Assembly (NCBI GenBank): GCA_000309945.1
Contig: CM001633.1
Span: forward strand, 1,956,292 to 2,020,291
Length of the DNA: 64,000 nt
Direction: 5' to 3'
Origin: Leptolyngbyaceae cyanobacterium JSC-12
Lineage (GTDB): Bacteria; Cyanobacteriota; Cyanobacteriia; Leptolyngbyales; Leptolyngbyaceae
Made by a program: the position numbers and the translations under genes. Of the stretch, positions 6,148 to 41,642 are shown in pieces (position 1 is the stretch's first letter; each line of letters begins with the position of its first letter). The notes beneath the pieces are model-generated. The model ran no database searches, had not been told where the DNA came from, and worked only from the letters and a program-made list of their open reading frames with translations.

Positions 6148-6157
6148 CTAAGGAGCA

Positions 6158-6186: not shown

Positions 6187-6397
6187 CATATCTATTGACT
6201 CTTTAATCTAAGAATGTATTCAGTTAATTCGCTTTGATTAGTTTTTTCAATAGGGATTATTGCCTATCGTCCCCAGTTGATGGGATGATTACGTCTATCT
6301 AGCTAGATATAGCTGGATGCAGGTGACTTGTCTTACCTAGCTTTTTAATTCGTTTCACGCTAAACCCATCACAGACCCACCACTGAGTAGAGAGATC

Positions 6398-8410: not shown

Positions 8411-8450
8411 TTTGGCAGTTTCAGGCTAGTATCAGTTTCATTGTGAATGG

Positions 8451-8472
8451 AGGGCACATTTTCATGTGCCCT
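8451..8472 (+). terminator. Rho-independent terminator of transketolase gene
   Basis: A perfect stem (GGGCACAT at 8452-8459, ATGTGCCC at 8464-8471, extended by one A-T pair) closes on a 4-base TTTC loop. A moderately T-rich stretch follows, 41 bases after the tkt stop. Confidence 0.75.
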
Positions 8473-8543
8473 TCGTTATTTAAGTATCCAAACAGGGGGT
8501 GCTTGCCTGATAGGATACGGTTCAGTTAGGTGGCAAACTCTCC

Positions 8544-10662: not shown

Positions 10663-11202
10663 CTACTTCGCTGCTTTCGCATGTCCTTGCAAATCTGCCT
10701 TGCAGGTGTTCAACATGCGTTGGTCGTTTTCAGTAACCGTTGCTAGCTTGTGGAAACCTTGCAGACCCACCTTCAGAGTTGGATCATTGCTGGATGCAAC
10801 CGTTGCATTGCGATCAAGGGCAATTTCAAATGGATTGGTCGCGCGATCATAACTATTGGTCACAGTCAATGCAAGTTGATTATCCTTAAACGCACCTTCT
10901 GCACAGTCGAAAGAGGAATGCGGCATATATAACGCACCAACAACCTGACCACGTTTGGACTCAAATACAAAATATCCTTTACCAATCTCATCAGGCTTAG
11001 TGGATTGCCCATACAGATACACACCATCAGGCAGGCTAAGAGTATTGGACGATTGAGAAGATGGCTTCTGAGGCTCCGCCTGGGCAGGTAGCATATTCAT
11101 CGCCACAGCGCTCATTGCGAATGCAACACTCATAACTGAAAGGTTAATCCGATTTGCAAATTTAGACCAGTTAGAACGGGGCTGATTCTTTCGGTTTTGC
11201 AT
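10663..11202 (-). CDS. Secreted hypothetical protein
   Basis: A 179-residue protein from ATG 11202, chosen for its GGAGAAG site; an in-frame start at 11271 would place 23 odd residues before the signal. A basic N-terminus (N-R-K-N-Q-P-R) leads into a hydrophobic segment ending in A-Q-A, a typical signal peptidase I site near residue 43. The mature part begins with a Ser-rich linker, then a compact domain with L-P-D-G-V-Y-L-Y-G-Q-S and G-Y-F-V-F-E-x-K-R-G-Q-V-V-G-A-L-Y-M-P. Two cysteines could form a disulfide. I do not recognise a named family; similar short secreted proteins are frequent in cyanobacteria. Confidence 0.7.
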   Translation of the reverse strand: MQNRKNQPRSNWSKFANRINLSVMSVAFAMSAVAMNMLPAQAEPQKPSSQSSNTLSLPDGVYLYGQSTKPDEIGKGYFVFESKRGQVVGALYMPHSSFDCAEGAFKDNQLALTVTNSYDRATNPFEIALDRNATVASSNDPTLKVGLQGFHKLATVTENDQRMLNTCKADLQGHAKAAK

Positions 11203-11746
11203 CGTTACTTCTCCAACCACCCGGAATAAATAAATTTCAACTTGTAACAAGCTCTGTAAAGCTATCGGCAAAAAGCGTAAAAGCTATGCGATCGCTTCAA
11301 AATTTTCAATCAACTTACTCTACGTTTCACCGTGTAGTGAGTGCCTCGTCCATTCGACTCACCCTATCGGAGGATAGGGTCTGACTGAAGGCTAAAGTTA
11401 TTTAGGACAACAGGGATACACGGTGAACCATGTTGGAGGGGAACCAGAACACTATTTCTACTCTGATCAAAACATTTCTAATTACCTGACGCTATTACAT
11501 TTGGTGACAGTTATGTTGCTGACCACTTCACAACTACAGATGCGTCACAAGGGATTTCGGAAATCCCTTAAATATTTTTAATTAAGCGATTTTTTGCATA
11601 AAACCTGCAAAACCAGCCGAAGCATCTCTAGACAAATCCATGCAGGTGCAGGTCGTTCTTGCCAGCATCTTGTTATGCGATAGTCCAACCTCAACTTTGA
11701 TCAATGTTGTTTATTCAGATAGTCCAACTTTACAGACAGTCCAACA
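11203..11746. other. Divergent intergenic region with two hairpins
   Basis: About 540 bases without a supported gene between two divergent secreted-protein genes. It holds two compact hairpins: ACCCTATC/GATAGGGT at 11361-11380 (8-bp stem, 4-base loop) and AAGGGATTT/AAATCCCTT at 11549-11569 (9-bp stem, 3-base loop, followed by an A/T-rich run). A HIP1-type GCGATCGC lies near 11288. The hairpins could end a small RNA or act as regulatory sites; nothing more can be said from sequence. Confidence 0.5.
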
Positions 11747-28527: not shown

Positions 28528-28532
28528 CATGA
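28528..28532. repeat. Target-site duplication, left copy (CATGA)
   Basis: Five bases CATGA immediately before the left terminal repeat; an identical copy follows the right terminal repeat at 39962-39966. A 5-bp duplication is diagnostic of Tn7/Tn5053/Mu-like transposition. Confidence 0.85.
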
Positions 28533-28562
28533 TGTACGGAAACATTAAAGTTGGAAACTGAA
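28533..28562 (+). repeat. Left terminal inverted repeat
   Basis: Thirty bases matching the reverse complement of 39932-39961 at 29 positions; starts TGTACGG and ends with GGAAACTGAA. Confidence 0.88.
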
Positions 28563-28613
28563 CGAGGCTGAAACCCTGATTCTTCCGTCGTCGCCTTACA
28601 GTACTTAACAAGC

Positions 28614-28629
28614 TAAAGTTGGAAACTGA
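28614..28629 (+). repeat. Internal end repeat L2
   Basis: TAAAGTTGGAAACTGA, identical to the inner part of the left terminal repeat (28546-28561), 68 bases further in. Likely a transposase-binding site. Confidence 0.75.
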
Positions 28630-28667
28630 ATATGAGGTTATTTCTACAAGTGCAGGAATAGAAACAA

Positions 28668-28691
28668 TAAAGTTGGAAACTGTCACACTGT
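28668..28691 (+). repeat. Internal end repeat L3 with shared 14-mer
   Basis: A third TAAAGTTGGAAACTG copy (28668-28682) overlaps AACTGTCACACTGT (28678-28691), which recurs inverted at 39901-39914 near the right end. Confidence 0.75.
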
Positions 28692-28956
28692 AAGAAATAC
28701 TCATTGGTATGAATTATCAGAATTGCTTCTTAAAGGTTTACAAAAGAGGGCTTGACTAATTAACTATCTTAAGATGCAAATAATTGACGGTGGAAGGCTT
28801 TAGCACTAAGTCTTAGATTGAGACTAGCATGGCAGCCCTAACTAGAGATAATTAATCAGCAGTTTATAAGCAGTTCTTATAAAAGCCTGAGATGCAGTGC
28901 TTCCATGACGTCAGGCAACGGCATGGATAGCAAAGTTCTCTGTTTGACTGACAAAA
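28692..28956. other. Gene-free left flank of element
   Basis: No gene supported in about 265 bases. A small hairpin AGTCT-(7 bases)-AGACT lies at 28809-28825; a closely similar hairpin occurs near the right end at 39758-39774 (16 of 20 bases alike across the core). Confidence 0.45.
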
Positions 28957-29300
28957 CTAAGAAGCCGGAATACGGTTGAGGACAATGAATTCACGCTTGA
29001 AGGAGTCATCGAGTTGTCGCTTAGAAGCAATGGCAGGTTGCGCATCAGGAGCACTCGATAGAAACCGAATACACTGAATGTTCGATTGCTGAGTGATAGC
29101 AAAACGAATCCAATTCCAACCCAGTTTGAGATAACTCATACCTCGATTCCAGTGAGGGTCAACCAGACGACGTTTACCTGATGTCACGACTTGCAGTCCT
29201 TGCAGCACCAGAAACAGCATCGTCAAGGCAATGATGCCAATTAACTGAGTTGAGGTGCATGGCTTGGGAAGCCCATCACTGCGATCGCAGCTAGCAGGTT
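28957..29300 (-). pseudogene. IS4-family transposase remnant (C-terminus)
   Basis: A minus-strand frame whose last 110 residues look like the end of cyanobacterial IS4-type transposases: a hydrophobic helix, then L-V-L-Q-G-L-Q-V-V, R-R-L-V-D-P-H-W-N-R-G-M-S-Y-L-K-L-G-W-N-W-I. The catalytic DDE region is missing. Its upstream limit is a breakpoint near 29300 against the ATPase fragment on the other strand. No terminal repeat was found, so it is a dead remnant. Confidence 0.55.
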
Positions 29301-29312
29301 GGAGTAGTGAGG

Positions 29313-29677
29313 GGTTACGCTGCCCCAATGTTGAGATTAAATTAATGACTGACGACAGGATTGCCCCTGTATCACTGATCCAGATGCCCAACGGCATGGG
29401 CAAAACCACAACTCTGACGATGATTCGAGCCGCGATGAGTGGTGAAGCTCAGGGGTGGACTGCTGGGAAAATTAAAAGCTTACGTCGTCCAGGTGAATCA
29501 CGTTCAGAGGGTAGATTTATTCTGAATTTGAGAGTTGATGACCAACCCTTGACAATCCCTTACTTGCTATCTGCTCAATTGTTAGGTAGAGATTTATCAC
29601 GCCTAGCAATCCACACAAAAAATCAGTTCGAGATTTGGAAGCACTCGTCTACTATGCCAGGAAATTTGAGCGGTTAA
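29313..29677 (+). pseudogene. P-loop (SMC/Dnd-like) ATPase fragment, N-terminal
   Basis: About 100 recognisable residues: L-R-C-P-N-V-E-I-K-L, then a Walker A in Q-M-P-N-G-M-G-K-T-T-T-L-T-M-I-R-A, followed by a beta-rich stretch (G-R-F-I-L-N-L-R-V-D-D-Q-P-L-T-I). This is the start of an ABC/SMC-type ATPase. The coiled coil, signature and Walker B are absent, and the 5' end is cut near 29313. It does not read like the usual DndD N-terminus, so I treat it as a separate gene's remnant. It runs into the next pseudogene near 29600-29635. Confidence 0.5.
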
Positions 29678-30221
29678 GGGTCGATCGCGCTCATGGCATT
29701 GCACCTCACAAACCAATATTGCTCCTGTCAGTCATTAAACTCATCCAGCAAGGGGAGATCGCGCAGAATCAAATTTACCTGTCGGACGAACTGATTACTA
29801 CTTTTAAGACGGTTTGGAGTTATCTAGGGTCAGAGAACCATTACCCGGATATTTCCAGACCTTTTTTTGTTTACGTGGCGATAAGTTCTGGCATCTCGTC
29901 CCCAATCGGGGTTATCGAAAAATTATTACTTCTAAAGTTAAGCTAAAAATCTTTACGGAAGTTAAACAAGCTGTTAAATATGCTCATATTGATGATGCTT
30001 TGCTTGAATTGCTTCAAGATCCACTGTCAAGAGCCAGTTTAACGACTATCCTAGTACAGAAATGGTTTAGTTCTAAGCTGGATCAGTACAAACAGTATTT
30101 AGAAACAACTCCACTGAAGGGAACCCAAGATCTTTCTGGTCAGGACACTGAACAGTACAGGTTAAATGAAAAAAGACCTGAACTATTACATCAAACAGTT
30201 TACGCAACTTCGGATCGATAG
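29635..30221 (+). pseudogene. Sulfur-binding-domain protein, frameshifted, no HNH
   Basis: A paralogue of the next gene's N-terminal half. F-E-R-L-R-V-D-R-A-H-G-I-A-P-H-K-P-I-L-L-L is the hallmark of the phosphorothioate (sulfur)-binding domain. The frame breaks in a run of seven T at about 29863-29869: adding one T restores continuity into L-R-G-D-K-F-W-H-L-V-P, which aligns with S-Q-A-F-W-H-L-V-P of the intact copy. The rest continues to 30221, overlapping the next start by 56 bases, without an HNH domain. The start is unclear (TTG 29635), since upstream DNA belongs to another broken gene. Confidence 0.7.
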
Positions 30222-31131
30222 AGCGCATGGACAAGCTCCCTATCAACCGCTTTTGCTGTTGTCCTTGATAGATCTGATTGAACAGGGAACAATCACGGCG
30301 AACAATTTTCCGATTACACCAGAACTCATTTCTACGTTTATCAAATATCGCGATCGCTTGAGTTCTACCTTACATCAGGCGAATCCAGCACAGCCTTTCT
30401 ACCACATGAGCCGACCCAGCCAAGCATTTTGGCACTTAGTTCCAATACCCGGACATGAACAGGTTCTTCTTTCTGGTGGAAAACTGAATACCCTCAAGAA
30501 GCTGAGAGACAATGTTTTGTATGGCTATTTTGATGATGAGTTATTCCAGATTCTTCTAAACCCTCAAGAAAGAAGGAGTCTGATTAATGAACTCATTAAC
30601 AAATGGTTTCCTGATAAATTCGCACAAATACAGCAACTCTTACAGATTAATTCTTTTCAAGAATTTCGTTACTCTTTGCATGAGAAAGGTGGAGCAGTCT
30701 ACACCGTTGAGGAACTGAAAAAAGAAGATGAAGTAGAAACCTTTAGAAGAGATGCGACATTTCGCAAAGAAGTTCTCTCGCTCTATGATCAACGCTGTGC
30801 CTTCTGTCGCTTAAGAGTTATTAGTCAGGATAGTGAGAACATTGTCGATGGAGCGCATATTCTACCATTCTCTACATTTCGTGATGATCGATTTGATAAC
30901 GGTTTATCACTCTGTAAAAATCATCATTGGGCGTTTGATCATGGTTGGTTTGGCATTAGTGATGACTATAAAATTATTCTGCCTGAGAATCGTATCCATG
31001 AAGAGCCACCGATTGATACTAAACCCATGATTGCATTTCATGGAGAAACACTGTTTCTACCAAATCAGCAAGAGTTTCATCCCCGATCTGAAGCAATTCA
31101 ATGGCATCGTGAACGCTGGAACATTGCTTGA
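30166..31131 (+). CDS. Phosphorothioation-dependent HNH restriction endonuclease (SBD-HNH)
   Basis: A 321-residue type IV restriction enzyme. Residues 5-170 form the sulfur-binding domain (Y-I-K-Q-F-T-Q-L-R-I-D-R-A-H-G-Q-A-P-Y-Q-P-L-L-L-L, later F-W-H-L-V-P), as in ScoMcrA/SprMcrA-type enzymes that recognise phosphorothioated DNA. Residues 200-300 hold a zinc-associated HNH nuclease: C-A-F-C-R-L, then V-D-G-A-H-I-L-P-F-S, D-N-G-L-S-L-C-K-N-H-H-W-A-F-D-H-G. All catalytic features look intact. It normally cuts DNA bearing Dnd modification. Here it lies beside broken dnd genes, so it would protect against incoming Dnd-modified DNA without self-damage (inference). Confidence 0.85.
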   Translation: MKKDLNYYIKQFTQLRIDRAHGQAPYQPLLLLSLIDLIEQGTITANNFPITPELISTFIKYRDRLSSTLHQANPAQPFYHMSRPSQAFWHLVPIPGHEQVLLSGGKLNTLKKLRDNVLYGYFDDELFQILLNPQERRSLINELINKWFPDKFAQIQQLLQINSFQEFRYSLHEKGGAVYTVEELKKEDEVETFRRDATFRKEVLSLYDQRCAFCRLRVISQDSENIVDGAHILPFSTFRDDRFDNGLSLCKNHHWAFDHGWFGISDDYKIILPENRIHEEPPIDTKPMIAFHGETLFLPNQQEFHPRSEAIQWHRERWNIA

Positions 31132-31163
31132 GGCTTTATGAATTCAAAAGCGTCACAGCGTAT

Positions 31164-31358
31164 TTAAACTTGATTGCGACGTTCCTTAATCTGCATTACC
31201 AAGTCTGCTACTGTTAGCTCATCTTGCCATTGGTGTCGCTCTTTTGTGTAGTCACCATTTCCTCCATCAAACTGGTGCAGAAAGCGCACCATGTCAACGT
31301 AGCCCAGTTCCTTACGCAACGCTGCCAAACCTTGTCGTCTAAGCTCCATTGGGGTCAT
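31164..31358 (-). CDS. Small antitoxin-like protein paired with PIN toxin
   Basis: A 64-residue protein (start M-T-P-M-E-L-R-R-Q-G at 31358) whose gene overlaps the end of the PIN-domain gene by 20 bases on the same strand. Acidic/helical composition and pairing suggest an antitoxin or accessory protein in a toxin-first operon. No family motif is certain; the call rests mainly on context. Confidence 0.5.
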   Translation of the reverse strand: MTPMELRRQGLAALRKELGYVDMVRFLHQFDGGNGDYTKERHQWQDELTVADLVMQIKERRNQV

Positions 31359-31818
31359 TATCAAAGTCTCCTGTTTGAAGTATTGCAATCAGCCATACAG
31401 CAGGGTTATCGACAGATACAGTAAGTGAGTTACGGTATCGAGCCGCCCTTCTCAATAATCGATCATCTGTTGATAAAAAAACATCTACTTGACCAATTTC
31501 AACACAGGCGAGATGGAGTGCATCAAATCCTTGAAACCCCAAATTCTGTAGCTCCTCACCGCGCTGTGCTGCCATGTCATCGACTATTAAACGCGATCGT
31601 GCCATTAGCATCGCCTCCTCAATTCTTTGCCGCCGATCCGGATCTGCAATTTGAGCGACTTCGATTTCAACCACCTCGCTAATAGTCAGTTCCCATTCAC
31701 CCGTCTCGCACCGCTCCAAAATAGCTAAAACAGCCTCAGTTTCTACCCGAATACGAGCTTGGCTCTGGTCATCAAAGGGACGATTCAAACAACAAACATC
31801 GAGATAGATACGCAGCAT
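31339..31818 (-). CDS. PIN-domain (VapC-like) ribonuclease
   Basis: A 159-residue PIN-domain protein. The acidic active site is visible: I-Y-L-D-V-C-C-L-N-R-P-F-D-D at the N-terminus, conserved Glu in the middle, F-D-A-L-H-L-A-C-V-E and F-L-S-T-D-D-R-L-L at the C-terminus. ATG 31818 follows a GTG one codon earlier. VapC toxins cleave tRNA or rRNA when freed from their antitoxin. Its stop overlaps the small downstream gene, giving a compact toxin-antitoxin-like unit on the minus strand inside the element. Confidence 0.75.
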   Translation of the reverse strand: MLRIYLDVCCLNRPFDDQSQARIRVETEAVLAILERCETGEWELTISEVVEIEVAQIADPDRRQRIEEAMLMARSRLIVDDMAAQRGEELQNLGFQGFDALHLACVEIGQVDVFLSTDDRLLRRAARYRNSLTVSVDNPAVWLIAILQTGDFDNDPNGA

Positions 31819-31824
31819 CACTGG

Positions 31825-32165
31825 TTAGAAGTTATCGAATAGTAATGGTTGAATACTGCCATCGGGAAGGATCTCAGGAAGCCACTCATCCCCTCGATGT
31901 TCCGTCCCATCCCATTTTTCTGGATAGGTGTTTGCAGCAATCAGTTCCTTAATTCGCGCCAGTTCTTCATCATTGATCAGGCTAATTTCTGGTTTGCCAA
32001 GTCGTTGCGCTGCTGTATTCACCTCTGATTGAATGGCTAAAACTTGCTCTAGCATCCAACGTCGAGCATCTAGAGTCAATGGTCCCAAACGATTCTGTTT
32101 GGCTGAGAGAGAGCCATCCTTGTTGACCTCTCCATGCTTACGATGGCGATATTGCGGCTTTTTAA
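31825..32165 (-). pseudogene. dndC: DndC-like sulfurtransferase, C-terminal fragment
   Basis: About 110 C-terminal residues of a PAPS-reductase-like protein resembling DndC: K-P-Q-Y-R-H-R-K-H-G-E, then Q-N-R-L-G-P-L-T-L-D-A-R-R-W-M-L-E-Q-V-L-A-I-Q and N-D-E-E-L-A-R-I-K-E-L-I. The ATP-pyrophosphatase core is missing. The gene faces away from dndD, whereas dndC and dndD normally run in tandem, and the breakpoint against dndD lies near 32165-32190. The frame stays open to 32349 only as an antisense shadow of dndD. Its DndC identity rests on motif memory and context. Confidence 0.55.
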
Positions 32166-33363
32166 TTTCCCAATACAAAGGTCTGAGCTTTTGCAGCGGT
32201 CGCAGCAACACCAACAGGCAAGGAACAAAGCCGACGACCATCGCGCTGCCTTGCGAGAGGTTGCAGCGGGGGTCTTGCCTCTGGCATTGATTCAGCCTTT
32301 GCTTGAAGAGGCTCAAGTTCAAGCCCAGCAGGAGATCCGGCAACAACAATTAGAGTCCGCTGGTGAGTTGTTAAAGGAACGGAACCAGGACTTGCTTCAG
32401 TTTGTTAAATCACTAGACTTAGAAACGCAACAACTTGAGCAAATTCGTTCGTTTCTTGCAAAACAAGAAAAGGAAGTCTCAAAGGATATAGGGGAGACTT
32501 GGTTAGGTGCGGACGTAGACACCCTTCATCAACTAACGAACATATTGCAATATTCTCTGCCTCATCAGCGCCAGGTAGCAGCAGACCACTTAAAGCAGCT
32601 TCAAACTTATCAGGAGGAGATCGAAACCATTGAACGCTACCTTGCAACGGCTGCTTCCCCGGAGATGTATGACAAGTTAGTGCAGCATGTGCGTCAGGCA
32701 CAGGCAGAAGTCGTGAGCCTCAAAGCCGATCGCGAACACAGTCAACGGCTGCTTGAGCAAGCAGAACAAACCCTTGCCCGCACCAGGCAAGAACTAATGG
32801 ACTATGGCAAGCGGGTGATCGACCGCAAAAATGATGAGCATACACTAGCAGCGATCGCTAAAGTCCAAGACACCCTCAAAGTGTTCAAGCAAAAGCTGAA
32901 ACTCCGTAAGCTCAATCAGCTTGAAACCCTGGTGACCGAGTGCTTCCTCTACTTGCTGCACAAGTCGAACCTGGTGCATCGGGTTCAAATTGACACCGAA
33001 ACCTTCAGCCTCTCTCTGTTTGACTACGAAGGACAGCCTGTCCCCAAACATCGGCTGTCTGCGGGTGAGAAGCAGCTACTAGCGATTTCCCTGTTGTGGG
33101 GATTAGCCCGTGCCTCTGGGCGGCAACTCCCCGTGGCGATCGACACCCCCTTGGGTCGGCTGGATTCCTCCCATCGTGCCAACCTGGTTGATCGCTACTT
33201 CCCGCAAGCCAGCCACCAGGTGCTGCTGCTCTCGACGGACACCGAGATTGGCAAGACAGAGGTGAAACGGTTGCGGGAGAATGGGGCGATCGCCCGTGAG
33301 TATCTGCTGCGGTATGACTCAGCCCTCCAGCAAACTAAAGTAAAATCGGGATACTTCTGCTGA
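32134..33363 (+). pseudogene. dndD: DndD ATPase, 5'-truncated
   Basis: A 409-codon open frame holding the C-terminal part of DndD, the SMC-like ATPase of DNA phosphorothioation. A long coiled coil (about 20-270) leads to the head: H-R-L-S-A-G-E-K-Q-L-L-A-I-S-L-L-W-G (signature) and P-V-A-I-D-T-P-L-G-R-L-D (Walker B), then L-V-D-R-Y-F-P-Q-A-S-H-Q-V-L-L-L-S-T-D. The N-terminal Walker A is absent; normal DndD is about 650-700 residues. The first 15-20 codons are antisense to the dndC fragment. An ATG at 32134 could still express the stump, but it should not hydrolyse ATP alone. Confidence 0.75.
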
Positions 33364-33395
33364 TCGAGTTGACTTACAGAAGTAAGGGGAAAGCG

Positions 33396-34016
33396 ATGTC
33401 TTATAAAGATTTCACTCTAGAGCAAATCAATCAAAAGTTTGCGGTTGCAATTCAAAGCAATCTAGATGTTTTCTCAACTTACAAACAGCCCGTTCAAATC
33501 AATCCAGCCTTTGCTAGCCAACTGGAATATAGCACAACCTTAGCCCTTGCCATTAATACCGAAAAAGCCCGTTCGGAAATGATCATTGCCCCTATTTTAA
33601 TTGAGCTAAAACGGCTAACAGGCGATCGCATCAGCCTGTTTTCTGGGAGCGAATTTAATGTTGACGTGGCGCAAGGGCTGAATGGATTTTGTGACTTTAT
33701 CATTAGCCTTTCCAACCAGCAGCTTTACATTGAAGCCCCCGTTGCTATTATCGTTGAAGCCAAAAACGAAAACATTAAAGGTGGGTTAGCCCAATGTTTG
33801 GCAACCATGATTGCAGCACAACTGTTTAATCAACAAAAAGGGAATGGGCTTGATACGCTCTATGGTGCAGTGACCACAGGCAATCAATGGAAGTTTCTCA
33901 AACTCCATAGAGATACGGCAGCGATCGACAGCAAAGATTACTACATCGATCAGCTCTCCGACATCATGGGCATCTTGCTGACCATGGTAGAAAGCCATGC
34001 TTCGCTAGTAGCTTAG
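33396..34016 (+). CDS. Hypothetical protein, possible PD-(D/E)XK nuclease-like fold
   Basis: A 206-residue protein with ATG 33396 behind an AAGGGG site. The sequence contains I-A-P-I-L-I-E-L-K-R-L-T, C-D-F-I-I-S, then A-I-I-V-E-A-K-N-E-N-I-K-G-G-L-A-Q-C-L-A-T-M-I-A-A. This D...E-x-K plus Q pattern fits the restriction-endonuclease-like (PD-(D/E)XK) fold also used in type I restriction subunits. It lies between dndD and dndE and may be a cargo nuclease or accessory protein. The family name is not known to me. Confidence 0.55.
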   Translation: MSYKDFTLEQINQKFAVAIQSNLDVFSTYKQPVQINPAFASQLEYSTTLALAINTEKARSEMIIAPILIELKRLTGDRISLFSGSEFNVDVAQGLNGFCDFIISLSNQQLYIEAPVAIIVEAKNENIKGGLAQCLATMIAAQLFNQQKGNGLDTLYGAVTTGNQWKFLKLHRDTAAIDSKDYYIDQLSDIMGILLTMVESHASLVA

Positions 34017-34027
34017 ACAATAAATTC

Positions 34028-34089
34028 TGCAACGTTTGTAGTCACGACTGAAGTCGTGTCTGGCTAAAGCCAGCACTACAAACATTGCA
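34028..34089. repeat. Three-way-junction palindromic repeat (REP/MITE-like)
   Basis: An outer stem (TGCAA/TTGCA plus GTTTGTAGT/ACTACAAAC) encloses two perfect hairpins, CACGAC-TGAA-GTCGTG (34043-34058) and CTGGCT-AA-AGCCAG (34060-34073). All 62 bases are used in pairing or tight loops. Such elements occur in many copies in bacterial genomes; here it sits between the nuclease-like gene and dndE. Confidence 0.7.
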
Positions 34090-34134
34090 AAACTTTCAAT
34101 TCACTATACTAGCCACCGTTTCTTAGAGCCAATC

Positions 34135-34536
34135 ATGCTAGAGCCTCCCCTCGATCGCGTCCGCATTTCCCAAGCCGCTAAGGATCAATTGATCAAACTC
34201 AAGCGCGTTACTAAGATTGACCAGTGGAACATTCTCTGTCGCTGGGCTTTGTGCCGCTCCTTAGCAGAACCCACGCCCCCTTCGCCTGTCGCAATTCCAG
34301 CCGATAGCAATGTGGAGATGACCTGGCAGGTGTTTGGAGGGGCGATCGCAGATTTACTCACTATTGCACTCAAACAACGCTGTTGCAACGATGGCTTACC
34401 AACAGATAGAGAAACCCTCGCGATCCAGTTTCGGTTACACCTGCATCGAGGCATTGGTTATTTAGCAGGCGATTCAACCATTAAGACGATTGATCATCTG
34501 ATTGAGAAAGCTGTTGAATTAACCCCTCAGGTGTGA
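34135..34536 (+). CDS. dndE: DNA sulfur modification protein DndE
   Basis: A 133-residue protein with the DndE pattern: R-I-S-Q-A-A-K-D-Q-L-I-K-L-K-R-V-T-K-I, W-N-I-L-C-R-W-A-L-C-R-S-L-A-E-P, D-S-N-V-E-M-T-W-x-V-F-G-G and F-R-L-H-L-H-R-G-I-G-Y-L-A. DndE is a small helical protein that binds nicked DNA and assists the DndCD complex in exchanging a backbone oxygen for sulfur. It looks intact, but its partners here are truncated (dndD), fragmentary (dndC-like) or absent (dndA, dndB), so modification is not expected from this locus. The 3' end overlaps a PIN fragment on the other strand. Confidence 0.88.
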   Translation: MLEPPLDRVRISQAAKDQLIKLKRVTKIDQWNILCRWALCRSLAEPTPPSPVAIPADSNVEMTWQVFGGAIADLLTIALKQRCCNDGLPTDRETLAIQFRLHLHRGIGYLAGDSTIKTIDHLIEKAVELTPQV

Positions 34537-34695
34537 GTATTTGCAGTGCATCGGTTACAAAGTCCTGGGGATTGCGCGTCACAATGACTTCCAATTGATT
34601 AGCGATAGCAGTTTCATACTGCACCGCATCTTCAAGATCCCCAAAATTGTCTGAAAGTGCATTTACAATGACGCTTTGATCGACTGTAGCAATAC
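34481..34695 (-). pseudogene. PIN-domain toxin C-terminal fragment
   Basis: About 70 codons in an open minus-strand frame read A-L-S-D-N-F-G-D-L-E-D-A-V-Q-Y and then I-V-T-R-N-P-Q-D-F, the C-terminal active-site half of VapC-like PIN proteins. The N-terminal half and any antitoxin are missing; the 5' side is cut near 34695. Confidence 0.6.
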
Positions 34696-34696
34696 G

Positions 34697-34929
34697 GCAA
34701 AAATACCAAAGTACGATCGCTCAAAGATGCCACACCCGAAGAAGCCCTGGCGATGATCAACAAAATCATGCGGACCCGCTGGCAGGATCATCAACTGGTG
34801 AACGCTGGACTGACTCGCGCTGAAATGTCTCAGATTGCCGAAATTTTTGTGCAGGTCTGGCAACAGTTCAACCATCAACGGATTGCCTATCCCAAGTTGC
34901 CTCCAGTGCCACCCACCTTGGTCAAGTGA
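34697..34929 (+). pseudogene. Orphan gene fragment, C-terminal
   Basis: A 77-codon plus-strand frame without a start, reading K-D-A-T-P-E-E-A-L-A-M-I-N-K-I-M-R-T-R-W then A-G-L-T-R-A-E-M-S-Q-I and ending P-P-V-P-P-T-L-V-K. It is clearly coding-like (amphipathic helices) but I do not recognise the parent. It abuts the PIN fragment at about 34695, another breakpoint in the island. Confidence 0.4.
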
Positions 34930-35112
34930 AACACCCTAACGAGGCAGATTGGCAAGGCGATCGATAGATTCGCAATCAGTAATGATAACAACTCACTATT
35001 ATTTCAAGAATTGCTCTGCACGGATCTATGAGGCTTAGCGGCACTTGATTGCATTTTTACATAGCTGCATGCTCGTTGGATTGGCAATTCCTGCCCATTC
35101 GCCATATCTTTC

Positions 35113-35149
35113 CAGATCTGGGATTTCTTGAAGAAATCGCAGATCTGGA
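35113..35149. promoter_or_regulatory. 37-bp near-perfect palindrome upstream of pentapeptide gene
   Basis: CCAGATCTG and CAGATCTGG form the outer arms, GATTTCTT and AAGAAATC the inner arms, with single unpaired G positions between and in the centre. A TATAAT box follows at 35157-35162 and the ATG is at 35200, so the palindrome covers the expected -35 region. It could be an operator for a dimeric regulator or a stable cruciform. Confidence 0.6.
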
Positions 35150-35156
35150 GGCGGCT

Positions 35157-35162
35157 ATAATC
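35157..35162 (+). promoter_or_regulatory. Consensus -10 box
   Basis: TATAAT 38 bases before the pentapeptide gene's ATG. No good -35 lies at 17 bases; a TTGAAG is 22 bases upstream inside the palindrome, so activation or repression at that site is plausible. Confidence 0.5.
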
Positions 35163-35199
35163 GAGAAAAATTCTTCCCCCACATTTTCTCCCTGCCCCT

Positions 35200-37101
35200 A
35201 TGAAAGCCAGCGAAGTATTGCGCCGCTATGCCGCCGGAGACCGAGACTTCCGCCGCACGAGCCTGCGAGGGCAACATTTCAAAGGACAGGATCTCTCTGG
35301 TGCCGACTTCAGCGAAGCCGACATTCGCGGCACCAACTTCACTCATGCCAACTTAAAGGGGACGAACTTTACTAACGCCAAAGCCGGATTACAAAAACGG
35401 TGGGTGCTCATCCAATTGCTGTTGGTGTTTTTGCTCGCGGCCTTAGCCGGAGTTTTGCAGGGGTACTTTAGTTGGTGGATTTCTGGCAGCATTGTGACCA
35501 TCTGGGAGTACTTTCACCTACCCACCGAAGCTGAATATCAAGTTAGTTTAGCCATCTTAATCGATAACATTATCTATCTGACAATCTACCTCATTGTCAT
35601 TGTCACAACTATTGCGATGTTCACTCGTCAGGGTTTCACCAGCAAAGCGTTCGCTAGCGTCGCTGGCGCTGGCGCTGGCGCTGGCGCTAGCGTGCTGCTC
35701 GGCTTCTATTATAGTCGGCAGGCGCTCAAAGGCGACGAAAAATTTGCCCTGCTGCGGGCTTTTGGCATTGCCGTTGCCGCTCTGGGGGGCACCTCCTTTT
35801 GTGGCGCAAACTTGACCGATGCAAATTTCACAAACGCGATGCTGAGAAGCACAAACTTTCAGGCGACCCGGCAGCAAACCACCCTTCTGAACGGAGTCTA
35901 CTGGCACAATGCCAACCAGTTAGACCGTGCCCGTCTGGGGGATTCTATCCTCTCAAACTCCGCCGTCCGTGAACTTCTGGTGACTCGCAACGGCTACAAA
36001 AAATCCTACATTGATGCCAATCTGCGCGGCGCCAACCTGAATGGAGTTAACCTCGAAGCCGCCAACCTCACCTGGGCCGACTTGAGCCAGGCGACGTTGC
36101 ATCAGGCAAACCTCAAAGATGCCAACCTGCGGGAAGTGCTGGCCATTGGCACAGATTTTACAGCGGCTTATCTCACCGGAGCCTGCCTGGAAGGCTGGAA
36201 CATTGACCACACCACCACCCTGAAAGCAGTGGATTGTCAGTACATCTTTTTGTTAGAACACCCGAATCAACTGGGCAACCGCGAACGTCGTCCGCACGAG
36301 CCGGATCAGGTCTTCGCGCCCGGCGATTTTGCCAAGCTCTACACCAAGATGATCAATGTCGTTCAGGTTTTGCTCCGTAATGGTATGAACCGAACAGCAT
36401 TTGCGGCAGCATTTCAGCAGTTAATGAGCGAGAATCCTGACATCACCTACGACTCGATCCAAGCTGTGGAACGCCAAGGTGATGATGCCCTGGTCACGTT
36501 ATCTGTGTCTGAAACGGCAAACAAAGCCGAAATTTCCCGCACTCTGCGCGAATCTTACGAAAACCAGGTGCGGCAACTGGAAGCCAAAGTCGAAGAACTG
36601 CATCAACTCCGGGCTGCTGATCTCAAAGAGGTTGCCTTGGCCCAGAAATCTCAAATTTTTAACCAACTTGTGGGAGGAAACGCCATGAACGAAAGCATTG
36701 ATCGCAGTCAAAATATTAATGTGGACGGCAACTTTACCATCACTGCCACTAACTCTGTCGTGAACCTAGGCGAAATTAGCGGCACTGTCAGTAACGCAAT
36801 TCATCAACTTCAGCAGTCTAGCCAACCCGAAACGGTGCAATTAGCCGCCTGGTTAGACGAGTTGCAAGGGTTGATTGAAGCCGAACCGAATCTCAAAGAC
36901 GATGACAAAGTGGAAGCCCTGGAACAAGTCGGTACGCTGGCAAAAGCGGGCGAAAATCCCCAGGATAGCACCTTGAAAAAGCTATCGAATACGGCAGTCA
37001 AGATTCTGAAAGGGACGATCGCGGCTCTCCCCGACACCGCTAAACTCGCTGAAGCCTGTAGCAAACTCTTACCCCTCATCTCTGGTGCATTGGGTCTCTA
37101 G
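35200..37101 (+). CDS. Transmembrane pentapeptide-repeat protein
   Basis: A 633-residue protein. Residues 15-62 and 196-335 contain A(D/N)LxX pentapeptide repeats that form a right-handed quadrilateral beta helix. Between them are about three to four membrane segments (68-90, 118-140, 150-170, 180-197), the third containing an A-G-A-G-A-G-A-G-A run. Next comes a D-C-Q-Y-I-F-L-L-E-H block, a domain at 375-445, a coiled coil (about 445-480) and a C-terminal domain with N-I-N-V-D-G-N-F-T-I and helical ends. Similar multi-domain proteins are common in cyanobacteria without known function; a membrane sensor or defence role is only a guess. An IS5 element is inserted exactly at its stop codon. Confidence 0.75.
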   Translation: MKASEVLRRYAAGDRDFRRTSLRGQHFKGQDLSGADFSEADIRGTNFTHANLKGTNFTNAKAGLQKRWVLIQLLLVFLLAALAGVLQGYFSWWISGSIVTIWEYFHLPTEAEYQVSLAILIDNIIYLTIYLIVIVTTIAMFTRQGFTSKAFASVAGAGAGAGASVLLGFYYSRQALKGDEKFALLRAFGIAVAALGGTSFCGANLTDANFTNAMLRSTNFQATRQQTTLLNGVYWHNANQLDRARLGDSILSNSAVRELLVTRNGYKKSYIDANLRGANLNGVNLEAANLTWADLSQATLHQANLKDANLREVLAIGTDFTAAYLTGACLEGWNIDHTTTLKAVDCQYIFLLEHPNQLGNRERRPHEPDQVFAPGDFAKLYTKMINVVQVLLRNGMNRTAFAAAFQQLMSENPDITYDSIQAVERQGDDALVTLSVSETANKAEISRTLRESYENQVRQLEAKVEELHQLRAADLKEVALAQKSQIFNQLVGGNAMNESIDRSQNINVDGNFTITATNSVVNLGEISGTVSNAIHQLQQSSQPETVQLAAWLDELQGLIEAEPNLKDDDKVEALEQVGTLAKAGENPQDSTLKKLSNTAVKILKGTIAALPDTAKLAEACSKLLPLISGALGL

Positions 37102-38088
37102 GGCGTATCTGCAAAGTCTAAATGTAAGGTAGTGGCTCAATTGAGCCAAATCAGAATCGCAGCAATCGTCAGCATTGCAAGATAGTTCTCTGCCCGTTTT
37201 TCATACCGTGTTGCGACCCGTCGAGCTTGCTTCAGTCGATTGATGAGACGCTCAATCCGGTTGCGTTCTCGGTACAGTCCACGATTGAATCGGGGTTTCC
37301 GCTTGGCGTTTTTGCGCTTGGGAATCACTGGAGTCGTGTGCTGGCGGCGAAGGGTACGGCGAATCGAGCCCGCATCGTAACCTTTGTCGCCGCCAAGATA
37401 ACGCGGTCGTTGCTTCGGTCTGCCTTGTCCTTTGCGCTTGATGCGAGGTGCGGCTTGGTTCAGCTTGCCAACCCCTTTGACATCATTGCTCTGTCCAGGC
37501 AGGATGACAACCTGCATCGGTTTGCCCAATCCTTCCGCTTGAATCTGCATCTTGGTGCTAAAACCGCCTTTGGATCGTCCCAGTGCTTCCTGTTGCTGCA
37601 ATTTCTCGGTCGTTAGCCGTGGCTCTGGGGATGATTGTCCCCCCTTTTTGCGCCTGCTGCGTGTTGATGAGCGCGAACGATGGTGCTATCGATGAAAGGC
37701 ACTTCCCAATCCATCTGCTGCTGGGCATCTCCTTGCTGGTGCAATTGGTCGAGAATTGCCTGCCACACTCCTTGGGCACGCCAACGGTAGAAGCGACTCG
37801 ACACTGTACCACGGGAGCCGTAGCGCTCTGGCAAGTCTGACCAGGGTGCACCAGTTCGGTGGATCCACAAGATGCCATTGAGAACCTGACGATGCTCCTG
37901 GGCGGGTCTTCCCGTGGCAGCGGGCTTCGGCAGTAACGGTTGCAGTTTCTGCCATTGTGCGTCACTTAAATCGCCTCGATGCTGTGCCATGGTTGTGCTT
38001 TCCATCTGTTTCCAGATGTTAGAGTGCCCAGCACCGCTCGAAGATGCACCCTAGATTTAGGGTCGGTTCAGTGTTTGCAGATACGCCC
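37101..38088 (-). mobile_element. IS5-family insertion sequence (IS427-like)
   Basis: A complete 988-bp element. Terminal inverted repeats GGGCGTATCTGCAAA / TTTGCAGATACGCCC are perfect. The flanks read CTA...TAG, consistent with a TA (or CTAG) target duplication. The transposase is encoded in two frames. The insertion uses the pentapeptide gene's TAG stop, which is regenerated on both sides, so that gene is not shortened. Confidence 0.9.
37137..38005 (-). CDS. IS5-family transposase, two frames joined by -1 frameshift
   Basis: Frame A (37613-38005, 130 residues) has D-A-Q-W-Q-K-L-Q-P-L-L-P, G-I-L-W-I-H-R-T-G-A-P-W and W-E-V-P-F-I-D-S-T-I-V-R-A-H, carrying the first catalytic Asp. Frame B (37137 upward) has G-R-S-K-G-G-F-S-T-K, L-G-G-D-K-G-Y-D (second Asp) and R-E-R-N-R-I-E-R-L-I-N-R-L-K (Glu). 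At A5G6 near the end of frame A, a -1 slip gives K-K-G-G-Q-S-S-P-E and leads into frame B. This is the programmed frameshift of the group, so the transposase may be active. Confidence 0.85.
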
Positions 38089-38100
38089 TAGTTCAATTAT

Positions 38101-38359
38101 TTGGCTGCTTTTATCCAATTTTCAATCCCTTTCTTTGTAGGCACTCCTCCGTCTGTGAATGTCCAAATATTCTGTCTTTGCTGAGGAGCATAACTGATGT
38201 GGATAGGTCGATCGCTCCCATAGTAATACAGCGAATCAAACGCAACCGCTGTTCCAGAATACACTCCACGAGGCGCGCGCTATGCGTTACCCGCAAGGGG
38301 TCGCTCTCTAACCCTACAATCCAAAAATCACAGGCAGCACCGAGGCGACGAGTTTTCAT
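38101..38359 (-). pseudogene. Partial duplicate of the metallopeptidase-like pseudogene
   Basis: A degraded copy of the last 85 or so codons of the gene at 38970-39621. It starts R-R-L-G-A-A-C-D-F-W-I-V-G and carries the same in-frame 28-bp repeat insertion (38277-38304). It then needs a frameshift after C-I-L-E-Q-R-L to continue F-D-S-L-Y-Y-Y, S-Y-A-P-Q-Q-R-Q-N-I-W-T-F and finish G-I-E-N-W-I-K-A-A-K. Because the repeat insertion is shared, the duplication came after it. Confidence 0.65.
38277..38304 (+). repeat. 28-bp dispersed repeat, copy 1
   Basis: GCGCTATGCGTTACCC then GCAAGGGGTCGC; identical to copy 2 and one base different from copy 3. Lies inside the duplicated pseudogene tail. Confidence 0.8.
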
Positions 38360-38676
38360 GACTCACCATCCAAAATGCTGTTGATATCTTGCGTTGCATA
38401 TAGAATTCGTACAACTTCGATCGCATCATCCCATTCAAAGTAAAAAATCAGGTACTTCTTGAAATCCTTCACTGTCCATTTCCGTAGTCCCTGCAAGCGA
38501 GAATTTTTGACTGGGTAAAGGCTACCCATTCCTAGCATTCTGGCAAGTTAGGCGATCGTTGAGCGCGCTAAATCGAAAAACTTCAGGGCTGCCTCAAAAT
38601 TATTCTCAGCAATGTAGGCAAAGTGGTCGTCTAAATCCTGGCTTGCCTTCGGTCTGACAATAATTCGCCTGGTCAT
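38356..38676 (-). pseudogene. ParE/RelE-type toxin with nonsense codon
   Basis: Reading from ATG 38676: M-T-R-R-I-I-V-R-P-K-A-S-Q-D-L-D-D-H-F-A-Y-I-A-E, a typical ParE start. A TAA at 38548-38550 then follows F-D-L-A-R-S-T-I-A. In the same frame the protein resumes L-A-R-M-L-G-M-G-S-L-Y-P-V and L-R-K-W-T-V-K-D-F-K-K-Y-L-I-F-Y. The TAA most simply replaces CAA (Gln) by one base. Total 106 codons, the normal toxin length. The ATGA overlap with the antitoxin gene is preserved. Confidence 0.75.
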
Positions 38677-38927
38677 GCGTCTGACTGTTGAAAGCGTTTA
38701 ACCAGTTGAGAGCGCTTTTCTTCCCACCAACCATCCGTTGCCTCCAATGGTTCCCCGCTCTCCAGACCCTCTAGCAACAGAGATTCGATTCGCTCTTGCT
38801 GAGCAACTCGCTCCCGCTCCCGCAAAATCAGATGATAGACGTACTCATTGGCGGAGTTAAAGCCCGCTGCGATCGCTTGCTCTTCTACAAATGTTTGAAC
38901 CTGATCTGGAAGAGAGATATTCAGCAT
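38673..38927 (-). CDS. ParD/CopG-type antitoxin
   Basis: An 84-residue protein whose N-terminus M-L-N-I-S-L-P-D-Q-V-Q-T-F-V-E-E-Q is the ribbon-helix-helix DNA-binding start of ParD-like antitoxins. It is followed by N-E-Y-V-Y-H-L-I-L-R-E-R-E-R and an acidic, Trp-containing toxin-binding tail. It overlaps the toxin start by ATGA. With the toxin broken it may persist as an orphan antitoxin or autorepressor. Confidence 0.75.
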   Translation of the reverse strand: MLNISLPDQVQTFVEEQAIAAGFNSANEYVYHLILRERERVAQQERIESLLLEGLESGEPLEATDGWWEEKRSQLVKRFQQSDA

Positions 38928-39184
38928 TCGCTCCAGCCTTAAATCATTGCATTTCTGCTTCTAGGATAGCTAAAAACTTGGTTCAACTCGCTCAAGCCAT
39001 TGCTCAATCCCCTTTCTCGTGGGCGCTCTTGCTTCTGTAAAGGTCCAAATATTCTGCCTTTGCTGAGGAGCGTAACTGATGTGGATGGGTCGTTCACGAA
39101 GTGTCTCGGAACGAGAATCGCTCCCAATAATAGTAAAGTGAGTCAAATGGCAATCGCTGTTCCAGAATACACTCCACGACGCGC

Positions 39185-39212
39185 GCGCTATGCGTTACCC
39201 GCAAGGGGTCGC
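39185..39212 (+). repeat. 28-bp dispersed repeat, copy 2
   Basis: Identical to copy 1, at the equivalent position in the longer pseudogene. Confidence 0.8.
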
Positions 39213-39256
39213 TCGCCAACCCTACAATCCGAAAATCACAGGCAGCACCGAGGCGG

Positions 39257-39284
39257 GCGCTTTGCGTTACCCGCAAGGGGTCGC
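39257..39284 (+). repeat. 28-bp dispersed repeat, copy 3
   Basis: Same repeat with one change (GCGCTTTGCG), at a second site in the longer pseudogene, also in frame. Confidence 0.8.
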
Positions 39285-39621
39285 AGTAATACTTGCCATT
39301 CCGGTTCTTCTCATGCGCCATGTGCTGGTCGCGGCTCGGATCAACCCGCCCATTCTTAATCCCTGTCTCTGGGTCTTTCTGAGCCAGAAATCGCTTCAGA
39401 TCCTTTGAACAGAACCCATAGGTCAACTGAAACTGCTCCCTACCGAAGTGAGCAATCACAGGGTCAAGGATGTGATGACACAGAGCCTCTAACGCTGGAA
39501 TCGTCTCTTCCAAGTTTTCAGGATACGGGTCAATCTGATCTGCATACTTTTGGTAGGTTTGCGTACAGGTGCAAAACTCTTTCAGCGTCAGGTATTGACC
39601 GATCTGCATCACTAATCCCAT

Positions 39622-39900
39622 GCTGCAAGCCTGCTACTCCACTATGGCGAGATTATATAAACTTTTCCTATATAGATTCTTGCTTAATGATTAAAATCAT
39701 CTCTAAGCAAGGCAAATAATGGTTTTAGGGACTTTATAGCTAGAGAAGTTCGGAGCTAGTCTTACAGTGAGACTCGGTAGCTAGAAAGTTTTTGTTGCAA
39801 GTAAAAACTTGGGATCTAGTTCCTAAAACATGTCCAGACTGCAAACATTCTTAACATTTTTCTCATCTAAGGCTTTAATAGCTTAGTTAGTAGCCCAGAA
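39622..39900. other. Gene-free right flank with structured segment
   Basis: No gene supported. Bases 39722-39829 can fold as a branched structure: an 11-pair closing stem (GTTTTAGGGAC with GTTCCTAAAAC, one G-U), an inner hairpin AGTCT/AGACT extended by AGCT/AGCT (39754-39782), and a hairpin AAGTTTTT/AAAAACTT (39786-39810). It lies just inside the right transposon end. Confidence 0.5.
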
Positions 39901-39909
39901 ACAGTGTGA

Positions 39910-39928
39910 CAGTTAGTTTCCATGTTTA
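39910..39928 (-). repeat. Internal end repeat R2
   Basis: On the minus strand TAAACATGGAAACTAACTG, a diverged copy of the end motif, adjoining the 14-mer AACTGTCACACTGT (39901-39914) shared with the left end. Confidence 0.65.
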
Positions 39929-39931
39929 CAT

Positions 39932-39961
39932 TTCAGTTTCCACCTTTAATGTTTCCGTACA
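39932..39961 (-). repeat. Right terminal inverted repeat
   Basis: Reverse complement matches 28533-28562 at 29 of 30 positions and ends the element in ...CCGTACA. Confidence 0.88.
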
Positions 39962-39966
39962 CATGA
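39962..39966. repeat. Target-site duplication, right copy (CATGA)
   Basis: CATGA directly after the right terminal repeat, identical to 28528-28532. Confidence 0.85.
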
Positions 39967-39980
39967 CTTTATAAAACCTT

Positions 39981-41642
39981 CTACCTCAAACGCCCCGACC
40001 GCAAGATGCTGACGATGAGCCAGAGACCGAGTAGACTGGCTGATACGAAAAGAGTGCTACTGAGCCAAAAGAGGCGACCAGTGCGATCGTTTGCCAGGAT
40101 GAGAGCCGCACCCATGATGAGTGAACCGACGACAATACTAAACGACAGGCGATTGGCAGAATCATCAATGCTGCGTCGAAGCAAATCAAGATCCCGCAAA
40201 TTGATTTTCCACTGCAAGGTTTCTGAGGTCAGCCGTTCCAGCAACACTTCAACTTGGCGTGGTGATTGCAGTCCTAAACTTTTCAAGTCGAGTGCTGTTC
40301 TAAGTAGAGCTTGCAACGGTGCTTCTCCCACTAACTGCCGCTGAAACAGATCGGTCATCAGGGGCTTAATCTGCTCAGGCAGGTTGAAATTGGGGTCTAG
40401 CTTACGAGCAACACCTTCCAAATTCGCCAGGGTTTTGGCATACAGCCCCATGTTGCCCGGAACACGCAGATTATTAGCTCTAGCTTTTTGCAACACTTCG
40501 TAAAACAATTGGCTGAAGTTGATTTGAGCCAGACTCAGGCTGTAGTAGCGTCTTAACAGGCGATCGTACTCTGCTTCCAACCGAGACATATTCACTGGCT
40601 CGATTGGTTCTGCCAGTTGCAGTGTGAGTTGAGCACATCGTTGAGCATCCAAATTGACGATCGCCAGCAGCATTTCAGTTAAAACTTGCTGAGTCCGAGG
40701 ATCAAGGCGTCCAATCATGCCGCAGTCAAGTAAGGCAATCCGCCCATCATTCAGGTAAAACAAGTTACCAGGATGGGGGTCGGCATGAAAAAAACCGTCA
40801 ATATAAATTTGCTGAAAAAAGGCACGAATCAGCAAACTAACCGTTTCCTGGCGATTAATTTGATTGGTTTGCCCGTCTGCTTCATGCCCATTACTAGGGA
40901 AAGTCGCCAGGAGGAGCGGCACCCCATTGAGCCATTCCATCACCAACAACTTTTCAGTCGTGTATTCCCAATAAATTTCAGGCACAACCAGTCGTTCAGG
41001 ACGAAACCAACGACTACCCGATAAGTTGCGCCGTAGTTGGTCGGTATACTCTGCTTCTCGTGAAAAGTTAAGTTCTGCTCGGAGGGCATTAGCAAACTCT
41101 TCCGCAAGCGCTTTTAAGTCATAATACTGTCCAACTTTAGTTAAGGAAACCAAATCTGCCAGGCTACGAATTAAGCCAATGTCTTGTTCAATGGTGATTT
41201 CAATTCCAGGTCGTTGAACTTTTAATGCCACTTCTCGCCCATCTTTTAGAGTAGCACGGTGGGTTTGAGCGATCGAGCCAGCAGCAACAGGTTGGGGATT
41301 GATAGTTGCAAATACGTCTTCTATTGGGCGACGGATTTGCTGGCGAATTACGACTTCTACTTCTTCCCAGGGAACTGGGGGCACTTCTGCCTGCAAAGCA
41401 GTGAGTTCGTTGATGTATTCTGGGGGCAATAAGTCCGGTCGGGTACTGAGTACTTGCCCTAGTTTGACGTAGACGGGTCCTAAATCCACCAGGATGTTGC
41501 GTAGAACGGCAGGGGGTGGCAGTTGGGGTTCTTCGGCGCGAGTTCCAGTTAATAGTCGGCGCATGTAGCCCCATCCATTACGAAGCACGACTTCAGCAAT
41601 CTCGCGCTGGCGGGAACTAGCTTGGGCAAGGCGTGAAAACAT
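39981..41642 (-). CDS. ABC1/UbiB-family kinase-like protein
   Basis: A 553-residue AarF/ABC1-domain protein. Family motifs are seen: the N-terminal K-x-G-Q-type helix in G-P-V-Y-V-K-L-G-Q-V-L-S-T-R-P-D-L-L-P, the Ala-rich loop P-V-A-A-G-S-I-A-Q-T-H, the lysine in V-A-L-K-V-Q-R-P-G, F-H-A-D-P-H-P-G-N and the metal-binding D in A-L-L-D-C-G-M-I-G. Two membrane helices close the C-terminus (about 495-550). Relatives support quinone biosynthesis; chloroplast ABC1K proteins regulate prenyl-lipid metabolism. The mobile element ends 14 bases beyond its stop codon. Confidence 0.92.
   Translation of the reverse strand: MFSRLAQASSRQREIAEVVLRNGWGYMRRLLTGTRAEEPQLPPPAVLRNILVDLGPVYVKLGQVLSTRPDLLPPEYINELTALQAEVPPVPWEEVEVVIRQQIRRPIEDVFATINPQPVAAGSIAQTHRATLKDGREVALKVQRPGIEITIEQDIGLIRSLADLVSLTKVGQYYDLKALAEEFANALRAELNFSREAEYTDQLRRNLSGSRWFRPERLVVPEIYWEYTTEKLLVMEWLNGVPLLLATFPSNGHEADGQTNQINRQETVSLLIRAFFQQIYIDGFFHADPHPGNLFYLNDGRIALLDCGMIGRLDPRTQQVLTEMLLAIVNLDAQRCAQLTLQLAEPIEPVNMSRLEAEYDRLLRRYYSLSLAQINFSQLFYEVLQKARANNLRVPGNMGLYAKTLANLEGVARKLDPNFNLPEQIKPLMTDLFQRQLVGEAPLQALLRTALDLKSLGLQSPRQVEVLLERLTSETLQWKINLRDLDLLRRSIDDSANRLSFSIVVGSLIMGAALILANDRTGRLFWLSSTLFVSASLLGLWLIVSILRSGRLR

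What the first reader, a model, noticed from the sequence alone, without database searches (positions are those of the whole stretch)
28546..28691. Asymmetric array of transposase-binding-like sites at the left and right ends
The motif TAAAGTTGGAAACTG occurs three times at the left (28546, 28614, 28668; steps 68 and 54). Only a diverged second copy is at the right (39910-39928). A perfect 14-mer, AACTGTCACACTGT, is 145 bases inside the left end and 47 inside the right, inverted. Tn7-type ends are known to be unequal like this, which sets insertion orientation.
Basis: partly seen in the sequence, partly recalled or inferred. Interest (0 to 1): 0.6.

Follow-up and report, generated by a model that had tools for sequence, protein, structure and literature searches.

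The report
Transposase-less Tn7-type element beside ABC1 gene
The repeats are the unequal ends of an 11.4-kb Tn7-type jumping element that carries remains of an anti-phage system but no transposition genes, and it sits a fixed 19 bases past the end of a conserved kinase gene, a spot that related cyanobacteria also use for Tn7-type insertions.

Summary
The left end has three exact TAAAGTTGGAAACTG sites (steps 68 and 54). The right end has two inverted sites 20 bp apart. The tips share a perfect 18-bp inverted repeat (TGTACGGAAACATTAAAG) and are flanked by a 5-bp duplication (CATGA), giving an element of 28533-39961 (11,429 bp). Authentic Tn7 (plasmid R721) has the same layout: left sites 64/56 apart, right sites about 20 apart, near-identical motif. 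Autonomous tnsABCD elements in Calothrix (left 68/55, right 20/20) and Crocosphaera (at glmS) carry the same motif. The window element has no tns genes or remnants, and searches of its single-contig genome found no TnsB, TnsC or TniQ. It is therefore a non-autonomous Tn7-type element carrying a decayed phosphorothioation (Dnd) defence island. It lies exactly 19 bp past the stop codon of an ABC1-kinase gene, with the right end facing the gene. Two other genera have this end type at the same offset, and relatives carry other Tn7-type ends there. Trans-mobilisation is inferred: the tns-less right end is 89% identical between two genera whose ABC1 genes are 67% identical. I found no report of this attachment site in the papers searchable here.

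The parts
28533..39961 (.). whole Tn7-type element, 11,429 bp, no transposition genes
   Evidence: terminal repeats and TSD; no tns homology inside
28528..28532 (+). left copy of 5-bp target-site duplication CATGA
39962..39966 (+). right copy of 5-bp target-site duplication CATGA
28533..28550 (+). left tip TGTACGGAAACATTAAAG (perfect 18-bp terminal inverted repeat)
39944..39961 (-). right tip TGTACGGAAACATTAAAG
28546..28560 (+). left TnsB-type site 1
   Evidence: exact 15-mer
28614..28628 (+). left TnsB-type site 2
   Evidence: exact 15-mer
28668..28682 (+). left TnsB-type site 3
   Evidence: exact 15-mer
39934..39948 (-). right TnsB-type site 1 (1 mismatch)
39914..39928 (-). right TnsB-type site 2 (3 mismatches), 20 bp from site 1
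28678..28691 (+). AACTGTCACACTGT at the inner edge of the left end
39901..39914 (-). AACTGTCACACTGT at the inner edge of the right end
39962..39980 (-). 19-bp spacer between ABC1 stop codon and element (includes the TSD)
39981..41642 (-). ABC1-kinase-family gene whose 3' end is the proposed attachment site
   Evidence: Pfam PF03109 E 7e-74
29255..29677 (+). cargo: fragment with weak DndD N-terminal similarity (P-loop region)
   Evidence: PADLOC DndD 0.0019; NCBIfam TIGR03185 0.0088
30166..31131 (+). cargo: HNH endonuclease resembling phosphorothioated-DNA restriction enzymes
   Evidence: PF13391; NF045808 E 5.4e-33, below its curated cut-off
31825..32349 (-). cargo: DndC C-terminal fragment
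   Evidence: PADLOC DndC 9.4e-07; TIGR03183 0.00027
32134..33363 (+). cargo: DndD, C-terminal part only
   Evidence: TIGR03185 E 7e-106, profile 268-650
33369..34016 (+). cargo: PD-(D/E)xK nuclease-like protein
   Evidence: PADLOC PD_DExK 5.5e-53
34135..34536 (+). cargo: DndE, full-length match
   Evidence: PF08870 9.9e-44; TIGR03184 over cut-off
39094..39621 (-). cargo: right-end-proximal ORF shared with the G032 element
   Evidence: no family hit; 84% nucleotide identity to G032 over 501 aligned bases

Best explanation
The arrays are the TnsB-binding ends of a non-autonomous Tn7-type cut-and-paste element. A TnsAB transposase supplied in trans would bind three spread sites on the left and packed sites on the right. 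TnsC plus a TnsD-type selector that recognises the 3' coding end of the ABC1-kinase gene would place the insertion at a fixed distance downstream, right end towards the gene. The element carries a now partly decayed Dnd defence island. Shown by sequence: end anatomy, terminal repeats, TSD, absence of tns genes, fixed 19-bp offset in three genera, same end sites on autonomous relatives, and a tns gene set at the ABC1 site in one relative. Inferred: TnsB binding, TnsD recognition of ABC1, and movement in trans.
For: Ends: 18-bp terminal repeat, TGT...ACA tips, TSD CATGA. Layout equals Tn7 on R721 and Calothrix autonomous elements. Left-end layout recurs in several other cyanobacteria, Herpetosiphon and Pseudoalteromonas. 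Insertion exactly 19 bp past the ABC1 stop codon in the window and in G032 and G026, in spacer sequences that do not resemble each other; Tn7 inserts about 20 bp past the glmS stop codon with no demand on the sequence at the insertion point (PMC2918618). In G017 a tnsABC set with two tnsD genes starts about 0.6 kb past the ABC1 stop, next to packed 19-20-bp-spaced repeats. No Tns in the element; no Mu-C, TniQ, TnsB or TnsC found in the single-contig genome, while the same Mu-C search rings in 24 of 42 relatives. Trans movement: the right end is 88.7% identical between window and G032, and both lack tnsA at the place where autonomous relatives have it, while the ABC1 genes are 66.7% identical.
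Against: No autonomous element with exactly these tips (TGTACGG...) was found: 390 class genomes at <=1 mismatch gave only the window genome, G032 and a coding-region chance hit. The left end of the G032 element was not found, so that element is not fully delimited. The left end of the G017 element was not found either, so its tns genes are only probably part of the ABC1-site element. Tn7 has four right sites; the window has two recognisable ones. The single-contig genome may lack plasmids.
Confidence: 0.82

Rival explanations
1. A once autonomous Tn7-like transposon inserted here with its own tnsABCD and lost these genes afterwards by deletion and IS insertion. It is an immobile relic, not a trans-mobilised element.
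For: Cargo is visibly decayed: dndD and dndC are fragments and IS5-type transposase pieces are present. No transposase of this kind is left anywhere in the genome.
Against: G032 shares the same tns-less right end and adjacent ORF at the same site in another genus, at higher identity (88.7% and 84%) than the host gene (66.7%), so the tns-less configuration seems older than at least one of the insertions. No tns remnant is detectable.
Confidence: 0.35
2. The element was placed by an RNA-guided (CAST) system with a guide against the ABC1 gene, not by a TnsD protein.
For: Cyanobacteria hold most CAST types, and V-K CASTs use guide RNAs for attachment sites (PMC11406308).
Against: PMC8649781 puts CAST insertions 50-60 bp from the protospacer and CyCAST homing is 30-33 nt past the tRNA (PMC10293859), versus 19 bp from the stop codon here. 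No TniQ was found in the genome. G017 has two TnsD genes of about 665 aa at the site.
Confidence: 0.06
3. The repeats are operator or promoter sites of a regulator, not transposon ends.
For: In Lyngbya (G038) a like array lies upstream of a helicase gene.
Against: Terminal repeats with TSD, inverted copies at both ends, same motif flanking tnsABCD in other genomes. The G038 array abuts another Tn7-type end.
Confidence: 0.02

Closest known systems
Tn7 (E. coli plasmid R721, NC_002525.1)
   Same: three spread left sites starting 9 bp from the tip, about 20-bp-packed right sites, near-identical motif (ACAAAATAGTTGGGAACTGG versus ACATTAAAGTTGGAAACTGA), TGT tips, insertion about 20 bp past a conserved gene's stop codon
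   Different: no tnsABCDE; target is an ABC1-kinase gene, not glmS; two instead of four recognisable right sites
glmS-site Tn7-like elements of cyanobacteria (G032:C20, G035:C36, G020; Crocosphaera MO_188.B44)
   Same: related end sites (GCAAATAAAGTTGGATACTAG or ACAATAAAGTTGGAAACT), tnsABCD order, insertion just past glmS
   Different: autonomous and at glmS
Calothrix PCC 7716 tnsABCD element (L122, L123)
   Same: same sites and spacing: left 68/55, right 20/20
   Different: about 7 kb, all tns genes, no evident cargo; one copy lies past a GIY-YIG-like gene and the other past a short matching remnant of it
272-bp gene-less element in Plectonema LEGE 06105 (L091)
   Same: tns-less, both Tn7-type ends facing inward
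   Different: miniature, no cargo, imperfect flanking duplication

Membership tests
Tn7-like transposons | unequal left/right arrays of TnsB-type sites | tested here: met
Tn7-like transposons | TGT...ACA tips with 5-bp target-site duplication | tested here: met
   CATGA both sides
Tn7-like transposons | encodes DDE transposase TnsB plus TnsC (and TnsA) | tested here: not met
   no match in the element or genome; hence filed as a non-autonomous element with Tn7-type ends, not as a Tn7-like transposon proper
Tn7-like transposons | TniQ/TnsD target selector encoded | tested here: not met
Tn7-like transposons | insertion at a fixed short distance past a conserved gene | tested here: met
   19 bp past ABC1 stop in window, G032 and G026
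Tn7-like transposons | TnsB binds the end sites; TnsABC mobilise the element | not testable with these tools
   needs biochemistry
CRISPR-associated transposons (CAST) | cas effector, TniQ and guide array in or with the element | tested here: inconclusive
   no TniQ in the genome and no cas effector hit among the element ORFs that were scanned; CRISPR arrays not searched

The most novel reading that the evidence does not exclude
The 3' end of the cyanobacterial ABC1-kinase gene is an attTn7-like hotspot used by at least three lineages of Tn7-type ends, and part of what sits there is a family of tns-less cargo elements that spread between genera in trans, as satellites of autonomous Tn7-like transposons.
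Probability: 0.5. Interest if true: 0.6.

Novelty: new variant of a known kind. Interest (0 to 1): 0.5.

Why it matters
Surveys of Tn7-like transposons start from the tns core genes (PMC8649781), so elements without tns genes are invisible to them. This case shows that they can be found by their end arrays alone and that they can carry defence islands. The ABC1 3' end is a candidate new safe insertion site with testable TnsD proteins (G017), useful for understanding how TnsD proteins change targets and possibly for site-specific integration in cyanobacteria.

Tried and rejected
A hit of the tip motif in G227 is inside a coding region and has no array: rejected. The 15-mer in G031 is a single copy within apparent coding sequence: rejected. 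The tip-like match elsewhere in the own genome (L003, 2 mismatches) has no array: rejected. A BLAST search of plasmids with the left end found nothing. Full text of Hsieh and Peters 2023 (PMC9881144), the most relevant cyanobacterial survey, is not held, so the ABC1 site may be listed there. Paper searches for Tn7 with ABC1 kinase, AarF or UbiB gave none. An empty-site comparison in the two congeners was not informative because gene order differs downstream of ABC1 (no NurA gene nearby).

Full report
Observation. The three exact TAAAGTTGGAAACTG copies (28546, 28614, 28668) are there and are the only 15-mer in the window with three copies within 200 bp. The right end has two inverted copies, 39934-39948 with one mismatch and 39914-39928 with three, 20 bp apart. 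The 14-mer AACTGTCACACTGT lies at the inner edge of both ends, at the distances stated. The outer tips share TGTACGGAAACATTAAAG perfectly (18 bp; 29 of the first 30 bases match) and are flanked by CATGA on both sides. This is a 5-bp target-site duplication that delimits an element of 28533-39961, 11,429 bp.

What the ends are. Plasmid R721 carries an authentic Tn7 with annotated tnsA-E. A matrix trained only on the cyanobacterial sites finds its left sites at 141, 205 and 261 (steps 64 and 56, the first 9 bp inside the tip) and right sites at 14108, 14128 and 14169 next to tnsA. The window has left steps 68 and 54, also starting 9 bp inside the tip, and a right step of 20. A scan of 85,000 species' genomes for two sites 30-60 bp apart recovered the same left-end layout (about 68/55) in Calothrix, Plectonema, Myxacorys, Anabaena, Xenococcus, Herpetosiphon and Pseudoalteromonas. 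In Calothrix PCC 7716 two copies of a roughly 7-kb element carry L end - tnsD - tnsC - tnsB - tnsA - R end, with left steps 68/55 and right steps 20/20 of ATAATAAAGTTGGAAACTG. In Crocosphaera the packed sites lie between glmS and tnsA. glmS-site elements of the window's own family use the cousin site AAATAAAGTTGGATACT. The arrays are therefore TnsB-type sites; binding itself is inferred.

No transposase. tblastn of TnsA, B, C and D from three lineages finds nothing significant in the element or window. The single-contig genome has no Mu-C match, no TniQ match, and no match to Calothrix TnsB or to G032 TnsC. The Mu-C search rings in 24 of 42 relatives, so it is sensitive; the single-genome TniQ, TnsB and TnsC searches had no positive control. 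The element is non-autonomous as it stands. Its cargo is a damaged phosphorothioation defence island: C-terminal DndD, a weak DndD N-terminal fragment, a DndC fragment, DndE with a full-length match, an HNH enzyme resembling phosphorothioate-dependent restriction endonucleases (below the curated cut-off), a PD-(D/E)xK protein, a pentapeptide-repeat protein, a ParD-like antitoxin (below cut-off) and IS5-type transposase pieces. Dnd cargo in Tn7-like elements, including cyanobacterial ones, is known (PMC8649781).

The attachment site. The right tip lies 19 bp past the stop codon of an ABC1-kinase gene. In G032, another genus, the same end type lies exactly 19 bp past the stop codon of the orthologous gene, and the two 19-bp spacers do not resemble each other. 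A third genus, G026, has a solo remnant end at 19 bp. G035 has a remnant at about 18 bp. Other end types occur at the same place: G034 at 19 bp with GAGAAATAGTGATCGCAC repeats, and G018 and G017 at 22 and 24 bp with AATAATTACCTGGACT repeats spaced 19-20 bp. G017 has tnsD-tnsC-tnsB-tnsA and a second tnsD starting about 0.6 kb past the ABC1 stop. Tn7 inserts about 20 bp past the glmS stop codon and needs only TnsD binding inside the coding end (PMC2918618). By analogy a TnsD-type protein reads the ABC1 3' coding end. This is inferred. Nucleotide conservation there is moderate (about 1.1-1.4 bits per position over the last 45 bases in 31 orthologues, no higher than further upstream), so conservation alone is not evidence for a binding site.

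Mobility. In autonomous relatives such as Calothrix tnsA lies next to the right end. The window and G032 elements instead share the same tns-less right end: 170-bp ends, 88.7% identity over 150 aligned bases, then a shared ORF at 84% over 501 aligned bases. Their ABC1 genes are only 66.7% identical. Non-coding transposon DNA more alike than a resident gene, with unrelated spacers, suggests that a tns-less element moved between genera, most simply with Tns proteins in trans. A 272-bp gene-less element with both end types in Plectonema shows that other tns-less forms exist. Loss of tns in place remains the main rival (about 0.35).

Verdict. What is added is the exact delimitation, the lack of any detected Tns protein in the genome, and the ABC1 attachment site, for which I found no report in the searchable papers; the most relevant survey, PMC9881144, is not held. 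It fails the coding part of Tn7-like membership, so I file it as a non-autonomous variant with Tn7-type ends.

Noticed in passing
L091 (Plectonema LEGE 06105) 867-1138: Gene-less 272-bp element with a three-site left end and a one-site right end of the same Tn7 type: a miniature Tn7-type element. Flanks ATATG/ATATA match 4 of 5.
   Followed up: partly
L015 (Lyngbya HA4199-MV5) 6885-7095: A window-type left end lies back to back with a different Tn7-type end (CAAGTGCGATCAC sites); the repeat type of the latter also occurs past ABC1 in G034. Two abutting elements, one with DndD-like and helicase genes.
   Followed up: partly
window 28678-28691, 39901-39914; L158 about 580-600; L171 about 555-570: ACTGTCACA follows the innermost site in Tn7-type ends of different site lineages. 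Its role is unexplained.
   Followed up: no
L160 (G017) 1089-9970: tnsABC with two tnsD genes of about 665 aa past ABC1, transcribed towards ABC1, opposite to the glmS-type order; the far end was not found.
   Followed up: partly
L122/L123 (Calothrix PCC 7716) near 11040-11240: Both tnsABCD copies lie just past a gene end reading WGQPFGK (GIY-YIG-like), apparently a further attachment site; in L122 only a short remnant of that gene end was seen.
   Followed up: partly
L089 (uncultured delta-proteobacterium) 2055-2230: Two left-type and two right-type sites face each other within about 180 bp, possibly another miniature element; no clear TSD.
   Followed up: partly
window 28957-29409 (-): ORF that looks to the eye like an IS4-type transposase C-terminus, close to the left end; no family hit.
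   Followed up: no
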